Assembly (NCBI GenBank): GCA_028284865.1
Contig: JANQQV010000021.1
Coordinates: 1 to 39,460, forward strand
Direction of reading: 5' to 3'
DNA: 39,460 nucleotides
DNA from: Rhodothermales bacterium
GTDB lineage: Bacteria; Bacteroidota; Rhodothermia; Rhodothermales; UBA10348
A program made the translations under genes and the position numbers. The notes under the pieces were generated by a model that saw only the letters and a list, made by a program, of their open reading frames with translations, searched no databases and had not been told where the DNA came from. Shown piece by piece: positions 1,909 through 29,338 of this stretch (its first letter is position 1; every line of letters starts with the position of its first letter).

Positions 1909-4900
1909 CTACATGCTGCGACGATACTGCCCGCCAACCTCGAACAGGGCATGCGTGATGTCGCCGAGGGAGCACACGGGCACGGCATCCATGAGGGCGT
2001 CGAACGTGTTCTCGCCGGCGCGAGCGACGTCTTGCAGACGAGCGAGCGCAGCATTGCCTTCATCCGGATTCTGTCCCTGGAACGCCCGCAGATTCCGGAT
2101 CTGACGATCCTTCTCTTCTGTGGTTGAGCGCATCAAGGCGACCGGTTCGCCTTCTTCAGCATCTTCGCCTTCCGAGCGGAACGTGTTGACGCCGATCACG
2201 GGCAGCTCACCCGTGTGCTTTTTGCCTTCATAGTAGAGGCTTTCTTCCTGAATCTTGGAGCGCTGGTACATGGTCTCCATCGCGCCTAGCACACCACCGC
2301 GATCATTGATGCGTTCGAACTCCATCAGGACGGCTTCTTCAACGAGGTCAGTCAATTCGTCGATGATGTACGCGCCCTGAAGCGGGTTCTCGTTCTTCGC
2401 CAGGCCCAACTCGCGGTTGATGATGAGCTGGATGGCGATGGCGCGTCGCACGCTTTCCTCGGTCGGGGTCGTGATGGCCTCGTCGTACGCGTTGGTGTGC
2501 AACGAATTGCAGTTGTCGTAGATAGCCATCAACGCCTGCAGTGTGGTGCGGATGTCGTTGAACTGGATTTCCTGCGCGTGGAGGCTACGGCCTGAAGTCT
2601 GAATGTGGTATTTCAGCTTTTGCGACCGTTCATTGCCGCCATAGCGGTTTTTCATGGCCACAGACCAGATGCGTCGAGCCACACGGCCGATGACCGAGTA
2701 CTCGGGATCCATCCCATTCGAGAAGAAGAAGGACAGGTTCGGCGCAAAGTCATCGATGTTCATCCCGCGCGCCAGGTAGTACTCCACGAACGTGAAGCCA
2801 TTCGAGAGCGTGAAGGCCAGCTGGCTGATCGGGTTGGCGCCGGCCTCTGCAATGTGGTATCCGGAAATGGAAACCGAGTAGAAGTTGCGGACACCGTTGT
2901 CAATAAAGTACTGCTGCACGTCGCCCATCATGCGAAGGGCGAATTCGGTGGAGAAGATGCACGTGTTCTGCGCCTGGTCTTCTTTCAGGATGTCAGCCTG
3001 GACCGTGCCGCGCACCTTCTTGAGCGTGGCTTCCCGGATCGAGCGGTACGTGCCGTCATCCAGAAGCCCCCACTCGACCAGTTGAGCGCCATACGTCCCC
3101 AAGAGGCCCAAGCCGGTTCCGTCGTGGGTTTTAGGGAGGCCGGTTTCAGGGCCGGTGGGTCCGGTAGGGGAGTAGACGGGCGCATCGGGGCCAAGCTTGG
3201 CCTGGATTTTTGCGTACACATCGTCCCATGAGCCTTCAGAACGGAAGTGTCGCTCGATCTGCTGATCGACGGCCGTATTCAAGAACATGGCCAGCAGCAT
3301 CGGGGCCGGACCATTGATGGTCATAGAGACGGATGTCGAAGGATCGCAGAGGTCGAAGCCGGAATACAGCTTCTTCATATCGTCCAGCGTGCAGATCGAG
3401 ACGCCCGCGTTGCCGACCTTGCCGTAGATATCCGGCCGCTCGTGCGGATCGAAGCCGTACAGCGTGACGGAGTCGAAGGCCGTGGACAAGCGCTTGCCCG
3501 GCATGCCCTCGGAAACCAGATGGAAGCGGCGGTTCGTCCGCTCAGGGCTCCCTTCACCGGCAAACATGCGAGTCGGATCTTCGCCCGTCCGTTTGAACGG
3601 AAAGACGCCTGAGGTGAACGGGAAGAAGCCAGGCAGATTCTCCAGCAGCGCGTACCTGAGGCGCTCACCTGGATCTTCCGTGCGAGGAAGGGCGATCTTC
3701 GGGATGTTCAATCCTGACAGCGACTCTGTGTAAAGCGGCACGGTGAATTCGCGGCCGCGGACTGTATACGTGTATTCCTTGGAACGATACTGCTCGGCCA
3801 GCGCGTCCCAGCCTTCCAGAATGGCTTTGGAGCGATGATCCAGTCGGTCCCACCAGCGGGCTGCCATTTTCGTCAGGCGATCCTCCAGCAGTTCCCGATC
3901 TTCGGGATTCCACTCGGACACCTGGGACAGAGCACCGCGCGCTTCACCCCATTTGCGGGCGAACACGATTTGCTCCTCGGCACGGAACCGGTAGTCCCGG
4001 CATGTGTCGGAGATGTCGCCCAGATAGCGCTGGCGCTTGGGCGGAATCAAGGCTTCTGCATCCGATTTGAAGTCTTCGACCGGCTGCGATTCAAACGTTG
4101 CCGAGGCGCGATCGAATGCAAATCGTTCATTCAGCTCGCCCAGCATGGCCAAGTACAGATTGGTCACGCCCTGATCGTTGAAGTGCGAGGCCATGGTAGG
4201 GAAGACCGGCATCTGATCCGGAGCCGTATCCCAGGCACCTCGGTTGCGCTGCATCGTCTTGCGCACGTCCCGAAGCGCATCTTCGCTACCGCGCTTTTCG
4301 AACTTGTTGAGCGCCACGAAATCAGCCGCATCGAGCATGCCGATTTTCTCGAGCTGCGTTGGAGCACCGAATTCCTGCGTCATGACATACAACGTCAGGT
4401 CGGTCATGTCCGCGATCTCGGTGTCGCTCTGGCCGATTCCTGCCGTTTCGAGAATGATCAGGTCGAATCCGGCCGCTTTGCACACCGTGATGGCGTCACG
4501 GAGCGCCTGACTGGTCGCACGGTTGGCCTGTCGCGTGGCCAGGGAGCGCATGTAGACGCGTTCGCCAGCCGTGTCGTAGATGCTGTTCATCCGGATGCGA
4601 TCACCCAGCAAAGCGCCACCCGTGGAGCGGCGAGTGGGGTCGACCGAGAGGACCGCGATGTCCAGATCCTGGAAGTCGGTGATGAATCGTCGGACCAGTT
4701 CGTCGGTCAGGGTCGACTTGCCCGCACCGCCCGTTCCGGTGATACCGATGGTCGGGATGCTGTAGTCCATCTCCGGGGCACCATCGCCGCCGGCAGACAT
4801 CGTTTCCACTTGCGAGATCCCGCGTGCAACGATCTGTGCTTTCTCGGCGCCGTCATTCAAGTCAAGCGTGTTGACGTCGAAATCGCATTCGCGCATCATG

Positions 4901-5370
4901 AGATCAATCATGCCGCGAAGTCCGAGTTCGAGTCCGTCTTCGGGCGAAAAAATGCGCGCTACGCCGTACTCGTGGAGCTCCTGGATTTCCTCGGGGACGA
5001 TAACGCCGCCACCACCGCCATACACGCGAATATGGCCAGCTCCGCGCTCACGCAGCAAGTCGACCATGTAGCGGAAATACTCGTTGTGACCGCCCTGATA
5101 TGAGGAGACCGCGATTCCTTGGGCATCTTCATGGATGGCCGTATCGACAATCTCCTTCACGGACCGATTGTGTCCCAGATGGATGACCTCGGCACCGGCC
5201 GATTGCAGGACGCGACGCATGATGTTGATGGCTGCATCGTGACCATCGAACAGGGAAGCCGCGGTGACGAATCGAACCGGGTGCACCGGTTCGTGCCACG
5301 TTGGCGCTGCGTCAGCGGAAGCGCTTTCGGGAGCGGACGGAGAGGTGGGCTGGGCAGAAGGCGTCTGCAT
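1909..5370 (-). CDS. icmF: Fused isobutyryl-CoA mutase, IcmF
   Basis: This B12-dependent mutase interconverts isobutyryl-CoA and n-butyryl-CoA and carries its own GTPase chaperone. Numbering is from the ATG at 5370 (1153 aa). The B12-binding domain comes first, with DGHDAAIN at 42-49 and His44 as presumed cobalt ligand. The MeaB-like G domain follows, with Walker A GTGGAGKS at 212-219 and a NKFE motif. The large mutase domain is C-terminal, with [16 protein letters not shown] and [14 protein letters not shown] typical of IcmF. Two pocket residues match IcmF rather than methylmalonyl-CoA mutase: Phe590 (Tyr in MCM) and Gln801 (Arg in MCM). The frame stays open upstream to a TTG at 5415, but the added residues are Ser/Pro-rich and unconserved in type. 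It probably has its own promoter near 5506-5536. Confidence 0.96.
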
Positions 5371-5505
5371 GGAGTCGCGGGGTGAACCAGAGAATGATCC
5401 GGGATGGTTGGCCAAACAAGCGCAAGGCTCCGAGAGAGCCGACGAGCGTTTGGCAGATCCTGTAGTTACGCAGGCCGTAGATCGAGGTTTAAGAACCCCG
5501 GACGA

Positions 5506-23815: not shown

Positions 23816-25714
23816 TCAGCGTCGGGGGATGAACGTCGTTGATTCATCAGATGCTCCCCGTCTGAATTCATTCAGCGCCGGGGGACGATCGCCTGTCAGG
23901 AAGGTGCCCAGGAATCGATTGAAGTCGACAAACGGTCGACGATAGAACAATGCGCCGTCTCGCAACGACAGCGCTCCTTCCCAAGCGGACGTGATACGCA
24001 GTGAATCCTGAGATGGTGGCGAACCCCAGACCAGAGACTGGGGGTGCCCCGGTGCCCGGATCTGTACGGGTTGGTACTTGTCGACAAAACGCTCTTCGGT
24101 TCGACCTCCGTCCGCCGCGCCCGTTGTAGCGCCTGGAAAGGATACACGTCGTTCCTGGACGGTCTCCCACCTCCACGAGCTCATGTCAGGCCCGTACAGA
24201 CGGGTCAAATTCTCGATGGTCTGTTGAAGGGCCGTTTGATGATCAGCATCGCTCGAATCCGAAGGGGCTAGCAGCGTTGTGAGCGATTCCAGAATCGATG
24301 CGCCCGGCTCGGCCGCGCCGTATTCCAGATTCCAATTGGTCAGATAGCGCACCGCTTCCCGTTCCTGCCTGCTGGCAAGTATTGAGTCGGGGAGGTGCTG
24401 GACAAGCGCATCGAGCCGCTCGCTGGCTGCGCGGGAAAGCGTGGACCCCATCCATGCACCCAATGCTGGGGCACTGCTCATTCCTTCAACCGTTGCCGAG
24501 GGATTCATGGCCGCCGGCGCCGAGGTAACGAACAGGATATTCGACTGAGGCTGGACTGTGGTGGATGGACTTCCGCTGGTCGTGAAGCCCACGCCACCCC
24601 AATGGATACCGTCTGGCGCAAGAAGGGTGGTTCGGGGCGTTGCCCCCGAAAAACTCGATACCCAGGTGGAAGCGTCGGTTTGGGTGGATTGCCCGGACCA
24701 TGTCAGCACGCGTACGGCTCGCGATTCGCCGGCGCGAGGTGGGGGCTCAAGGATCAATCGATCGCCCAGCCGATGGGCGGCTTCGATGATTTCCGTTCCG
24801 CGAAGATTGATGCGGTGATGGGTGGTTTCAACATCATCGCCGTCGACCGTGATCACTTCCGAGGTCCGATCTGACCGCGCCAGAATGCCCCAGGCATCGA
24901 CATCGGTGCGCCCCAAGGGAGCGACCACGGTGCCAGGCATCATCAGGCCGGTGAATCTGCCGACTCCGAAGTTCATTTCCGATTCGGAGAAGAGCGGCAC
25001 CCCTGTGGTCCCGGTGGCCAGTCGGGCCGAGAGATACGGCGAAGTGACATGATTGACGCCGGCAACCCAGTTGACAGCAGATCCATGGAAGCCAAGCAGC
25101 TGTTGAAGTTGCCGGTCGGCACGGCTCCAGTCTTCAGGCAAGATGGCCTCTTCTGACGGAAGGGGAGCTGACGATATCCAGGCGAACAACCGCTCGACCG
25201 CGAGCGAATGCCAAGGCTCCCATGATTCAGACTCGATGCCCAAAATGAGGAAGGGCGCCGCCCGATTCACATCCCTTGCCAACAGCGCCAGATCCACGCC
25301 GGCAGCGTAGGCAGAGACGGCATTGCGTGTGTCGGTATCGAGGGCATCCCACGCCTCTCGGGCGTCTCCGGGAATGTCGAGCCTCCGGATCAACTTGTCG
25401 GCTTCAAGAGCGTCGGGTCCGAACCACTCCGATAGTTGTCCCAGCGCCGCTTGTCTCCACAAGGCCATTTGCCAGGACCGACTGCGAGCATGTCCGTAGC
25501 CAAGCATCAGCAGGCCATCATTCAAGGAGCCTGCTTGAACGGTCGTGCCACCCGATTCTGACCAGGAGACGGTCCCTTCGTTCGAGATCCGGTCCGACAC
25601 CAAACGAGAGGGAGCATCGGGACCTGCCGAGAAGGCCAGATACATGATGAGTGCAATGCTGACCAGAAGTCCGCAAAGAACGATCAACAATGTCCATCCG
25701 AACCTTTTCGGCAT
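23816..25714 (-). CDS. Penicillin acylase-like Ntn hydrolase, divergent
   Basis: Members of this family are amide hydrolases that cut themselves to expose an N-terminal Ser. From ATG 25714 it has 632 residues and begins with one membrane helix (about 6-31), so it is anchored facing the periplasm. The alpha-chain motif GYGHARSRSWQMALWRQAALG, LSEWFG is clear. The cleavage site should be G-S at about residue 211-212 (HGSAVNWVAG), but the usual S-N pair is S-A here and the downstream DPH motif is missing. The chain is also about 100 residues shorter than most family members. Either the substrate differs or activity is reduced. It starts 7 bases past the PolX-like stop, so the two are co-transcribed. 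Confidence 0.78.
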   Translation of the reverse strand: MPKRFGWTLLIVLCGLLVSIALIMYLAFSAGPDAPSRLVSDRISNEGTVSWSESGGTTVQAGSLNDGLLMLGYGHARSRSWQMALWRQAALGQLSEWFGPDALEADKLIRRLDIPGDAREAWDALDTDTRNAVSAYAAGVDLALLARDVNRAAPFLILGIESESWEPWHSLAVERLFAWISSAPLPSEEAILPEDWSRADRQLQQLLGFHGSAVNWVAGVNHVTSPYLSARLATGTTGVPLFSESEMNFGVGRFTGLMMPGTVVAPLGRTDVDAWGILARSDRTSEVITVDGDDVETTHHRINLRGTEIIEAAHRLGDRLILEPPPRAGESRAVRVLTWSGQSTQTDASTWVSSFSGATPRTTLLAPDGIHWGGVGFTTSGSPSTTVQPQSNILFVTSAPAAMNPSATVEGMSSAPALGAWMGSTLSRAASERLDALVQHLPDSILASRQEREAVRYLTNWNLEYGAAEPGASILESLTTLLAPSDSSDADHQTALQQTIENLTRLYGPDMSSWRWETVQERRVSFPGATTGAADGGRTEERFVDKYQPVQIRAPGHPQSLVWGSPPSQDSLRITSAWEGALSLRDGALFYRRPFVDFNRFLGTFLTGDRPPALNEFRRGASDESTTFIPRR

Positions 25715-25721
25715 CGTGCCC

Positions 25722-27401
25722 TCAGCGATTCTTGCGGCTATCGAGCCAGTTCGCAAACGCGTCGCAACTCATGGCATTCAGGCATTCCGCTGATGCAAGC
25801 CCGCCTTTCCTTGCCGCCACTGTACCCCATTTCATCAGATCCAGTTGCTCGATGGAATGGGCATCGGGATTGATGGATACCAGAACTCCCAGTTCGCGGG
25901 CCAACTCGATCCAACGCCAATCCAGGTCCAAGCGATACGGATTGGCGTTCAGCTCTACGGCGACATTGTACGAAGCGCAGGCCTCGAGGATGGCACGATG
26001 ATCGACGGGGTAACCGTTTCGCTTGAGGATCAGTCGTCCGGTCGGATGACCCAGAATGCTGGTAGCCGGGTGGGAGATGGCCTTGATGATCCGATCCGTC
26101 GCTTCGGCTTCCGTCATATTGAATCCGACGTGCACGCTGGCCACAAGGAAATCGAACGTAGCCAGGACGTCGTCCGGATAGTCCAATGACCCGTCCTGCA
26201 GGATGTCGCTTTCCACTCCGGAAAACACCCGGAACGCAGGACCGCCGTCCGACGCGAACTCGGCATTCAGAGCCCGGATTTCCTGTTGTTGCCGGGCAAC
26301 TTCTTCAGCACTCATCCCGCTGGCGACTTTCAGGGACTGGCTGTGGTCGCAGATCCCGAAGTACTCGAACCCTCGGGCGCGAACCGCCTCGCTCATTTCT
26401 CGGAGGGTGTGGGCGCCGTCAGAATAAGTGGAGTGGTTGTGCAGGACGCCTTTCAGATCCGCATCCGTGATCAGATTCCAGCTCGACAATTCGCCGAGAC
26501 GCGAGGCGGCGTCTGGAAGATCGCGAAGTTCCGGGGCCACCCAGGGCAGTCCCATCGATTCGAACAGCGCCGATTCGGTCGGCGAGGAAGCCGCTTGATC
26601 GCTCTGAGCCGGCAATCCTTCCACAAACGAAGACGGGCCCGTGGTGATCAGGATCGCCGAGCCTACACGATCTGGGGCACAGACCAGAATGCGCACGGCC
26701 AACCCGTCGGGAAACGCGCCCGTCCAAGCGCGCCCCAGCGGATCGTCGGACACCTCCAAATCAACGCCTTCGATCAGGGGGTGTTGGTCATTTTCGCTGG
26801 CCGCGACGAGCACAATTTCGCCCGTCTCATTCATGCCCCGGGCAACTTCTCCCGTGATTTCAATCGGATTGAATCCTTGACTCTGCAGTTGTGCTGCCAC
26901 TCGCTCTGCCTCGAGCCGGGCATCAGCCCCACGACGGCGACCTTCAAAGGAGCGCAGCAGGGCGACGTTCTCGATAATGGAAGACTGGCTCTTCTCACCG
27001 AACCCATCCAGTTCGGCGATCCGACCCGTGCGGGCGGCCGTTTCGAGGTCATCCAGTGATTGGATATTGAGCGTTTGCCACAACACGCGGGCCTTCTTGG
27101 CTCCGAGTCCTTTCACACTGAGGACATCCAGCAAGCCGGGTGGGAGGGCGCCAAGCAGATCGTCGCGGACTTCGAATGAGCCATACGTCAGAATCTCCCG
27201 GATCTGGCTCTCGAGGCCCTTTCCGATGCCTTTGATGGAGGTCAACTCGTCACGCTCTATCAGGTCAGTCACCGGTTCCTCGAGCCGCTCGATGGTCCTC
27301 GCCGCCGACGCGAAAGCTCGGGATCGAAACGGGTTGCCACCCGTGAGTTCGATCAAGGCGGAGGTTTCCTTCAGTGGTTTGGCGATGGCTTTGTTCGTCA
27401 T
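25722..27401 (-). CDS. PolX homologue: intact PHP, defunct polymerase palm
   Basis: PolX enzymes join a family X DNA polymerase to a PHP phosphoesterase and act in base-excision repair. At 559 residues the length is standard. Helix-hairpin-helix motifs are present (SIKGIGKGLESQI at 55-67, SVKGLGAKKARVLW at 95-108). The PHP domain is complete: HNHSTYSD at 321-328, CDHSQSL, SGVESDIL, SVHVGF, GHPTGR, NANPYRLDLDW and NPDAHS. In the palm, GEVARGMNETGEIVLV at 184-199 aligns with the family's RRG...GDIDxL, replacing two catalytic Asp by Glu195 and Val197; the third is Arg237. DNA synthesis is therefore unlikely and nuclease or phosphatase action remains possible. ATG 27401 lies in a duplicated 16-base segment. 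Confidence 0.9.
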   Translation of the reverse strand: MTNKAIAKPLKETSALIELTGGNPFRSRAFASAARTIERLEEPVTDLIERDELTSIKGIGKGLESQIREILTYGSFEVRDDLLGALPPGLLDVLSVKGLGAKKARVLWQTLNIQSLDDLETAARTGRIAELDGFGEKSQSSIIENVALLRSFEGRRRGADARLEAERVAAQLQSQGFNPIEITGEVARGMNETGEIVLVAASENDQHPLIEGVDLEVSDDPLGRAWTGAFPDGLAVRILVCAPDRVGSAILITTGPSSFVEGLPAQSDQAASSPTESALFESMGLPWVAPELRDLPDAASRLGELSSWNLITDADLKGVLHNHSTYSDGAHTLREMSEAVRARGFEYFGICDHSQSLKVASGMSAEEVARQQQEIRALNAEFASDGGPAFRVFSGVESDILQDGSLDYPDDVLATFDFLVASVHVGFNMTEAEATDRIIKAISHPATSILGHPTGRLILKRNGYPVDHRAILEACASYNVAVELNANPYRLDLDWRWIELARELGVLVSINPDAHSIEQLDLMKWGTVAARKGGLASAECLNAMSCDAFANWLDSRKNR

Positions 27402-27481: not shown

Positions 27482-27622
27482 GCTCTTCCGTTGGATGCGT
27501 CCCGGAATCTAATGAACAGGAGATGTCGACCGGTCATAAAGATTGACCGAATCCCGGGGGATCAATCCTGTCAAAGCTCCCGTAAGGAACGCCTTGAAAT
27601 TGCCCAAACCAGCTCCAGAAGC

Positions 27623-29338
27623 ATGATCAACCAACGGCGAACCTTGTTGTCGAAACGACTGACTTCACCTCGTGGCCTGATTCTCGGATTGCTCGCAGCC
27701 ATTCTGGTCATCACGGGATTGCGTGTCGAGAGCATGCTAAGTGACCGCGAAACGGCTACCGCTTTGCAGCGGATCGAAGACGTTTTCATGTTGATCGATC
27801 GACGCTATGTCGAGGAGACAGATCCCAACGAGATCGCGCAATATGCGATTGACGGCATGCTGGGCGAACTCGATCCCCACAGTGTGTTCTTCGACGCAGA
27901 GACGCTCAAGGGTGAGAATGAATCGTTCGATGCGTCCTTTGAGGGAATTGGCATTTCCTTCGAGCTGCTTCCAGGCGAAGCTGGCTCAGACACGCTCGCT
28001 GTACTGAGCGTGATTCCCGGAGGTCCGAGCGAGGAAGTTGGACTCCAGTCCGGAGACCGGATCCTGGTTGTTGATGGCAAATCCACCATCGGTTTCGACG
28101 AAGAGGACGTCCGGCGCCACCTGAAAGGACCTCGTGGTTCCGAGGTTGCCATCTCCGTCCAGCGTCCGGGCGTGGATGCGATGCTGGAGTTCGACATCGT
28201 TAGAGACAAGATTCCGCTCTACACCCTGGATGCGGCCTACATGATGGAGGACAACACCGGATACATCCGTCTGAATCGCTTTGCCAGGACGACGTACAAC
28301 GAATTCATGGCGAGCTTGCGCACCCTCAAGGCGCAGGGCATGGAGCGCCTGGTGCTTGATCTGCGGGGCAATCGCGGTGGCTATATGCAGATGGCCGTTC
28401 GCATCGCAGGCGAATTCCTGAATGAAGGCGAACTGGTCGTCTCTCAGGATGGGCATACGGAAGACAGCAAGGAAACCTTCTACGCGACGGGCAATGGTCT
28501 GTGGGAAGAAGGCCCGGTCATGGTGCTCGTTGACGGAGCGTCGGCATCTGCGAGTGAAATCGTCGCCGGAGCCTTGCAGGATCACGACCGAGGCCTGGTC
28601 GTGGGCCAACGCACTTTTGGAAAAGGACTGGTCCAGAAGCAGTACGTGCTTCGGGACGGAAGTGCGCTGCGGCTGACCGTGGCCCGTTACTTCACGCCAT
28701 CTGGTCGTCTCATCCAGACAGACTATGAGAGCGGCGATCGCGTGGACTACTACGCCAGCAAGGCTGCGCTGAAGAAAACGGATGGCACGCAAACGGCTCG
28801 AGAGTTGCTCTCCGATGTGCCGGACTCCTTGCGATTCGAAACGGCTTCCGGCAGGGTGGTCATCGCAGGTGGCGGCATCATCCCTGACTACATCGTGCCC
28901 GCTGACAGCTTGTCTCCTTTGATGCGGACCGTGCTTGGCCGGAATCTGGAGAATCAGTTCATCCGCTCGTGGGTCGATCTGTATGGTGCTTCGATCAAAG
29001 AGCGCTGGGGTGAAAATCAGGATGCGTTCATCAATGGCTACCAAGTGGAAGGCGCCATGCTGGATGCGTTCCGCTCATTTGCCGCTGACAAGAATGTTCT
29101 TATCGGCAGTGGTTTGACTGTCGACGACCCTTCAGAATCATTCTCGGATGAGGATCTTGCCGCCGATCGCGAAATGCTGTCTACGCTTCTGAAAGGCCGT
29201 CTGGCGACCCGTTTGTACGATCGGAGCGCTTGGTATCCTGTTTGGCGGCACGTCGATCATTCCCTGGTCGAATCGCAAAAGTTGTGGTCCTCGGCGGGAG
29301 AATTGGCAGACCTCTACTCAGCTGCCGGCTCTCGCTAA
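27623..29338 (+). CDS. ctpA: C-terminal processing protease (S41)
   Basis: This periplasmic, membrane-anchored serine protease trims C-termini of exported proteins. From ATG 27623 it has 571 residues, with a signal-anchor helix at about 17-35. The N-terminal S41 helices (VFMLIDRRYVEETDPNE) come first, then a PDZ domain (SFEGIGISFEL to GLQSGDRILVVDG). The catalytic core follows, with LDLRGNRGG, the nucleophile Ser in DGASASASEIVAGALQD and the general-base Lys in RTFGKGLVQ. The C-terminal extension of about 140 residues is typical of Bacteroidota members. The frame is open to a TTG at 27491, but the extra residues disrupt the signal anchor. It is divergent from the PolX-like gene and lies 280 bases before exbB. 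Confidence 0.94.
   Translation: MINQRRTLLSKRLTSPRGLILGLLAAILVITGLRVESMLSDRETATALQRIEDVFMLIDRRYVEETDPNEIAQYAIDGMLGELDPHSVFFDAETLKGENESFDASFEGIGISFELLPGEAGSDTLAVLSVIPGGPSEEVGLQSGDRILVVDGKSTIGFDEEDVRRHLKGPRGSEVAISVQRPGVDAMLEFDIVRDKIPLYTLDAAYMMEDNTGYIRLNRFARTTYNEFMASLRTLKAQGMERLVLDLRGNRGGYMQMAVRIAGEFLNEGELVVSQDGHTEDSKETFYATGNGLWEEGPVMVLVDGASASASEIVAGALQDHDRGLVVGQRTFGKGLVQKQYVLRDGSALRLTVARYFTPSGRLIQTDYESGDRVDYYASKAALKKTDGTQTARELLSDVPDSLRFETASGRVVIAGGGIIPDYIVPADSLSPLMRTVLGRNLENQFIRSWVDLYGASIKERWGENQDAFINGYQVEGAMLDAFRSFAADKNVLIGSGLTVDDPSESFSDEDLAADREMLSTLLKGRLATRLYDRSAWYPVWRHVDHSLVESQKLWSSAGELADLYSAAGSR

What the first reader, a model, noticed from the sequence alone, without database searches (positions are those of the whole stretch)
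25722..27401. PolX homologue with a dead polymerase and a live-looking PHP domain
The palm motif aligns cleanly with the family consensus, but all three catalytic aspartates are changed (Glu195, Val197, Arg237), while every PHP metal motif and both helix-hairpin-helix motifs remain. Family knowledge says the palm needs these Asp for synthesis. The protein may therefore be a DNA-guided nuclease or phosphatase instead of a polymerase. Conservation of the full length suggests selection, not decay.
Basis: partly seen in the sequence, partly recalled or inferred. Interest (0 to 1): 0.6.

Follow-up and report, generated by a model that had tools for sequence, protein, structure and literature searches.

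The report
Dead-polymerase PolX replacing exonuclease III
This gene encodes a bacterial family-X DNA polymerase whose polymerase centre has decayed but whose nuclease (PHP) domain is intact, a kind of protein already described in 2022; what looks new is that its order keeps it almost only where the standard abasic-site repair enzyme, exonuclease III, is missing, so it is probably the cell's stand-in for that enzyme.

Summary
In detail: 25722-27401(-) is a 559-aa PolX with Glu195, Val197 and Arg237 at the three catalytic Asp positions, a decayed dNTP pocket, truncated fingers, and every PHP metal ligand intact. This is a known kind: 'noncanonical PolX' (Prostova 2022, PMC9226535), about 27.5% of prokaryotic PolXs, shown for two Deinococcus members to lack polymerase and to be Mn-dependent 3'-5' exonucleases. 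The protein is a new member, not a new class.

Following it further gave something I did not find in the literature held here. The genome has no exonuclease III (Xth), no endonuclease IV (Nfo) and no Ku, but two endonuclease III genes. Across the order, PolX and Xth are nearly complementary (76 of 77 good genomes have one or the other, only 8 both); a phylogeny-aware test supports dependence (p about 1e-4 to 1e-5). In five Xth-bearing genomes the polX slot is precisely empty inside an otherwise conserved block.

Most likely the protein is the cell's abasic-site endonuclease and 3'-end cleaner. The NHEJ role proposed for the family does not fit this order. No enzyme activity could be measured here.

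The parts
25722..27401 (-). noncanonical PolX gene, 559 aa
27180..27401 (-). N-terminal 8-kDa HHH_8 domain (residues 1-74)
   Evidence: Pfam PF14716, E 1.5e-18
26970..27131 (-). HHH_5 thumb / helix-hairpin-helix region (residues 91-144)
   Evidence: Pfam PF14520, E 1.8e-10
26658..26909 (-). degenerate palm (residues about 165-248); no Pfam palm match, fold retained in the model
26817..26819 (-). Glu195 at first catalytic Asp position
26811..26813 (-). Val197 at second catalytic Asp position
26691..26693 (-). Arg237 at third catalytic Asp position
26547..26657 (-). truncated fingers (residues about 249-285); dNTP-site residues lost
   Evidence: 50 residues from the third triad position to LPW against 65 in T. 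thermophilus and a canonical mean of 72.4
25731..26456 (-). PHP nuclease domain (residues 316-557) with nine metal ligands and the basic DNA path R456, R461, N485, R490, K532
23816..25714 (-). penicillin-acylase-family gene, ATG 7 bp after the polX stop; conserved neighbour, function unrelated to repair
27491..29338 (+). divergent S41 peptidase (CtpB-like); other border of the polX slot

Best explanation
A noncanonical PolX: the palm can no longer bind catalytic metals or dNTP and survives only as a scaffold, while the 8-kDa and thumb HHH modules hold gapped or nicked DNA and the tri-metal PHP site hydrolyses phosphoester bonds. In this order it stands in for exonuclease III (and endonuclease IV): it nicks 5' of abasic sites and trims the blocked 3' ends (3'-PUA, 3'-phosphate, 3'-phosphoglycolate) left by endonuclease III and oxidation, so that another polymerase (probably Pol I) and ligase can finish base excision repair. 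Shown here: sequence, predicted fold, conservation, genome content, phylogenetic complementarity, precise locus absence. Inferred: the enzyme activities and the in vivo role.
For: (1) Triad E/V/R, dNTP motif YFTGSKxHN replaced by ITTGPSSFV, fingers truncated. Triad positions drift even between genus-mates (TST, CSE, CSR, VSD). Palm column entropy rises from 1.41 bits in canonical PolX to 2.42 in the order, while PHP stays lowest at 1.08. (2) All nine PHP ligands are invariant in 127 of 127 noncanonical sequences, as are the equivalents of B. subtilis R469, R474, N498 and R503; K545 is Lys in 123 of 127. Alanine at those five residues cuts AP-endonuclease efficiency 257- to 1674-fold in B. subtilis PolX (PMC6616362). 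(3) The own genome (97.7% complete) has one PolX, no Xth, no Nfo, no Ku and two Nth over the cut-off. Its four exo/endo/phosphatase-fold proteins look secreted or lipoproteins and none reaches the Xth cut-off. (4) Order: PolX+Xth+ 8, PolX+Xth- 73, PolX-Xth+ 28, neither 5 (Fisher 1e-14); among genomes at least 90% complete 76 of 77 have at least one, where independence predicts about 14 with neither. Pagel-type dependent-evolution test on an RpoB tree: LR 21.5 (p 2.5e-4), 27.7 (p 1.5e-5) without three incomplete genomes. (5) Phylum sample: 20 of 22 genomes lacking both Xth and Nfo have PolX, against 107 of 274 others. (6) In Xth-bearing G003, G023, G091, G092 and G095 the S41 and penicillin-acylase genes abut with PolX missing. 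(7) Precedent: a D. radiodurans polX xth double mutant, where PolX is noncanonical, shows reduced H2O2 resistance (PMC7548837).
Against: No activity was measured, and AP-endonuclease activity has been reported for canonical PolX, not (in the papers read) for a noncanonical one; B. subtilis PolX prefers ssDNA for AP cleavage. Few independent switches exist (8 PolX, 7 Xth changes); the independent-pairs test cannot reach significance (median p 0.25). Eight genomes keep both genes, so they are not strictly exclusive. One good genome (G022) and two in the phylum sample (G369, G373) seem to lack all three. Outside this order most noncanonical PolXs coexist with Xth or Nfo. Pagel's test can be inflated by single-clade events.
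Confidence: 0.66

Rival explanations
1. General 3'-5' exonuclease: the protein trims 3' ends (recombination intermediates, mismatched or damaged termini) and the complementarity with Xth reflects that shared exonuclease function, not abasic-site incision.
For: Deinococcus noncanonical PolXs are proven Mn-dependent 3'-5' exonucleases without polymerase activity (PMC9226535); Xth too is a 3'-5' exonuclease.
Against: The genome also lacks the other known AP endonuclease families searched, leaving abasic sites otherwise unserved; the PHP path residues needed for AP cleavage are invariant or nearly so.
Confidence: 0.22
2. NHEJ end-processing partner of Ku and LigD, as proposed for the family at large.
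For: Positive association of altered PolX with NHEJ genes in Bacteroidetes and others (PMC9226535).
Against: In this order Ku occurs in 10 of 114 genomes, 9 of them without PolX (Fisher 5e-5); the own genome has no Ku.
Confidence: 0.04
3. Residual nucleotidyl transfer by the palm using displaced acidic residues.
For: One acidic residue (Glu195) remains; a weak polymerase activity was once claimed for D. radiodurans PolX (discussed in PMC9226535).
Against: Triad positions vary freely; 66 of 71 order members keep at most one acid; the dNTP pocket is lost; the claimed activity was not reproduced.
Confidence: 0.02
4. Decaying gene on its way out.
For: The gene is missing from several lineages.
Against: Found in 81 of 114 genomes, PHP ligands invariant in 127 of 127, kept in a stable syntenic slot, absences almost confined to Xth-bearing genomes.
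Confidence: 0.02

Closest known systems
Noncanonical (altered) prokaryotic PolX, e.g. Deinococcus radiodurans PolX (2W9M, triad AEE), D. gobiensis PolX (ARE)
   Same: Domain order, altered triad and dNTP site, intact nine-residue PHP site, end-to-end fold match; sits with other noncanonical PolXs (one canonical/noncanonical change on the tree)
   Different: Shorter fingers than D. radiodurans PolX; triad EVR; carried in genomes without Xth, Nfo or Ku, whereas D. radiodurans has Xth (PMC7548837)
Canonical bacterial PolX (B. subtilis YshC, T. thermophilus PolX 3AU2)
   Same: Same architecture and PHP site
   Different: Canonical enzymes keep DDD/DDE, the YF-TGSK dNTP motif and full fingers; the window protein does not
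Exonuclease III (Xth) and endonuclease IV (Nfo)
   Same: Proposed cellular job: AP-site incision and 3'-end cleaning
   Different: Unrelated sequence families; this would be functional replacement, not homology
Actinobacterial 'PolX-like' proteins (PMC12926913)
   Same: PHP domain of the PolX type without polymerase function
   Different: They lack the polymerase region entirely; here a degenerate palm is retained

Membership tests
Noncanonical PolX (Prostova 2022) | PolX architecture: 8 kDa, thumb, palm, fingers, PHP | tested here: met
Noncanonical PolX (Prostova 2022) | Loss of one or more of the three catalytic acidic residues | tested here: met
   E195, V197, R237
Noncanonical PolX (Prostova 2022) | Altered dNTP-binding residues and truncated fingers (common in the class) | tested here: met
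   ITTGPSSFV for YLTGSKAHS; third triad position to LPW 50 residues against 65 in T. thermophilus
Noncanonical PolX (Prostova 2022) | PHP consensus HHHEHHEDH | tested here: met
Noncanonical PolX (Prostova 2022) | Groups with other noncanonical PolXs on the tree | tested here: met
   one canonical/noncanonical change on a 112-row tree
Noncanonical PolX (Prostova 2022) | No polymerase activity, Mn-dependent 3'-5' exonuclease | not testable with these tools
   needs purified protein
Canonical PolX (NCBIfam PRK08609) | Three acidic residues in the palm | tested here: not met
   also 378 bits against a cut-off of 426
Exonuclease III (TIGR00633) | Exo_endo_phos domain and Xth model match | tested here: not met
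   no Pfam or NCBIfam match of that kind in the window protein
PHP-type AP endonuclease / 3'-end processing (functional class) | Metal ligands and basic DNA path required for AP cleavage in B. subtilis PolX | tested here: met
   mutant data in PMC6616362
PHP-type AP endonuclease / 3'-end processing (functional class) | Measured AP-endonuclease activity | not testable with these tools
   needs assay

The most novel reading that the evidence does not exclude
In a large bacterial order the standard abasic-site endonucleases have been given up and a polymerase-dead PolX is the sole AP endonuclease and 3'-repair enzyme; polX and xth are interchangeable and have been swapped several times, with clean absence of polX from a fixed slot where xth is present.
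Probability: 0.55. Interest if true: 0.6.

Novelty: new member of a known kind. Interest (0 to 1): 0.45.

Why it matters
Noncanonical PolXs are common, yet why bacteria keep a polymerase that cannot polymerise is open, and the published suggestion (NHEJ) cannot apply where Ku is absent. A gene-content swap with exonuclease III gives the class a concrete, testable job and suggests that genomes which appear to lack an AP endonuclease are not really without one.

Tried and rejected
NHEJ link: tested with Ku across the order, found negative. Second, live PolX in the same genome: none; four other genomes of the order do carry a canonical DDD copy as well (L118-L121). Hidden Xth among other exo/endo/phosphatase-fold proteins of the own genome: four found, all apparently secreted or lipoproteins, none reaches the Xth cut-off. 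Functional hint from the operon: neighbours (penicillin acylase, BadF-type ATPase, S41 peptidase) are metabolic or secreted, so uninformative about repair. The first RpoB tree had three wrongly framed rows and was discarded; one search replaces it. Independent-pairs test: too few pairs to decide. The B. subtilis AP-endonuclease paper (PNAS 2010) is not held, so it is cited only through PMC6616362 and PMC4011885.

Full report
1. The observation. The 559-aa frame at 25722-27401(-) is intact. It matches PolX end to end: 2W9M from D. radiodurans at E 5e-94 and 3AU2 from T. thermophilus at 2e-79. Pfam sees HHH_8, HHH_5 and PHP but no palm, and the NCBIfam PolX model scores below its cut-off, 378 against 426 bits. 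The AlphaFold model (pLDDT 93.6) keeps the palm sheet, with the triad positions on its strands, and matches PolX structures over the full length (3AU6 Z 43; ASFV PolX palm rmsd 2.3 A over 137 residues). The tools did not print a residue-by-residue structural alignment, so the triad assignment rests on the sequence alignment plus the strand positions; nothing seen speaks for intact acids at the catalytic positions.

2. Decay and conservation. The dNTP pocket YFTGSKxHN is ITTGPSSFV here and the fingers are truncated (50 residues between the third triad position and LPW, against 65 in T. thermophilus and a canonical mean of 72.4). The triad drifts even within the genus (EVR, TST, CSE, CSR, VSD), and 66 of 71 order members keep at most one acid. 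Palm entropy is 2.42 bits in the order against 1.41 in canonical PolX, while PHP is the most conserved domain at 1.08. All nine PHP ligands are invariant in 127 of 127 noncanonical sequences. So are four of the five basic-path residues needed for nuclease and AP-endonuclease activity in B. subtilis PolX, the fifth being Lys in 123 of 127 (PMC6616362).

3. What is already known. Prostova et al. 2022 (PMC9226535) described exactly this class: 27.5% of prokaryotic PolXs lack triad acids, mostly in one cluster of Bacteroidetes and Deinococcus-Thermus that also holds a Rhodothermaeota member. D. radiodurans and D. gobiensis members have no polymerase activity but strong Mn-dependent 3'-5' exonuclease. 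A 2026 survey (PMC12926913) agrees. Our tree needs one canonical/noncanonical change. The protein is a new member of that kind.

4. Surroundings. A close relative is labelled Rhodothermales. polX lies between a divergent S41 peptidase and a penicillin-acylase-family gene whose ATG is 7 bp downstream, followed by BadF, pckA and acs. The block is conserved in the family and the polX-acylase pair through several families of the order.

5. The new lead. The own genome has one PolX, no Ku, no Nfo, no Xth and two endonuclease III genes. Four exo/endo/phosphatase-fold proteins exist, but their sequences (signal peptides, lipoboxes, one with a weak type IX sorting-tail match) point outside the cytoplasm and none reaches the Xth cut-off. 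Over the order (114 genomes) PolX and Xth are complementary: 8 both, 73 PolX only, 28 Xth only, 5 neither (Fisher 1e-14). Among 77 good genomes, 76 have at least one; independence would leave about 14 with neither. On an RpoB tree of 70 genomes a dependent model beats an independent one (LR 21.5 and 27.7), although independent-pair counts are too few to be significant. In a phylum sample, 20 of 22 genomes without Xth and Nfo have PolX; 13 of those 20 lie in this order. In five Xth-bearing genomes from three families (G003, G023, G091, G092, G095) the S41 and acylase genes are directly adjacent with polX cleanly absent.

6. Interpretation. PHP domains of canonical PolX cut abasic sites and clean 3' ends (PMC6616362), the same job as exonuclease III. 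A D. radiodurans polX xth double mutant is H2O2-sensitive (PMC7548837). The simplest reading is that here polymerase-dead PolX is the AP endonuclease and 3'-repair enzyme, with gap filling done by another polymerase. The NHEJ role does not fit: Ku is absent here and, in the order, nine of ten Ku genomes lack PolX. Neither of the two surveys mentions exonuclease III in its main text, and the 2022 paper mentions neither Xth nor Nfo; full-text searches found no report of this complementarity, though only open-licence papers are held.

7. Limits. No activity was measured. Outside the order most noncanonical PolXs coexist with Xth or Nfo, so the swap may be special to this lineage. Exceptions exist (G022; G369 and G373 in the phylum sample). 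The direction of change (polX lost or gained at the slot) was not established.

Noticed in passing
L122-L133: Stand-alone proteins made only of the PolX N-terminal modules (HHH_8 + HHH_5), some fused to a conserved ~120-aa C-terminal domain, in several families of the order but not in the window's genome.
   Followed up: partly
L118-L121: Four genomes of the order (G054, G055, G074, G020) carry a second, canonical DDD PolX beside the noncanonical one.
   Followed up: partly
window 23816-25714: Penicillin-acylase-family gene 7 bp after polX; the pair is conserved across several families of the order for no evident reason.
   Followed up: partly
order-wide: Ku goes with Xth (8 of 10 Ku genomes have Xth) and against PolX, opposite to the published PolX-NHEJ association.
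   Followed up: partly
window 1909-5415: Fused methylmalonyl-CoA mutase: B12-binding, MeaB GTPase and mutase domains in one 1168-aa frame.
   Followed up: no
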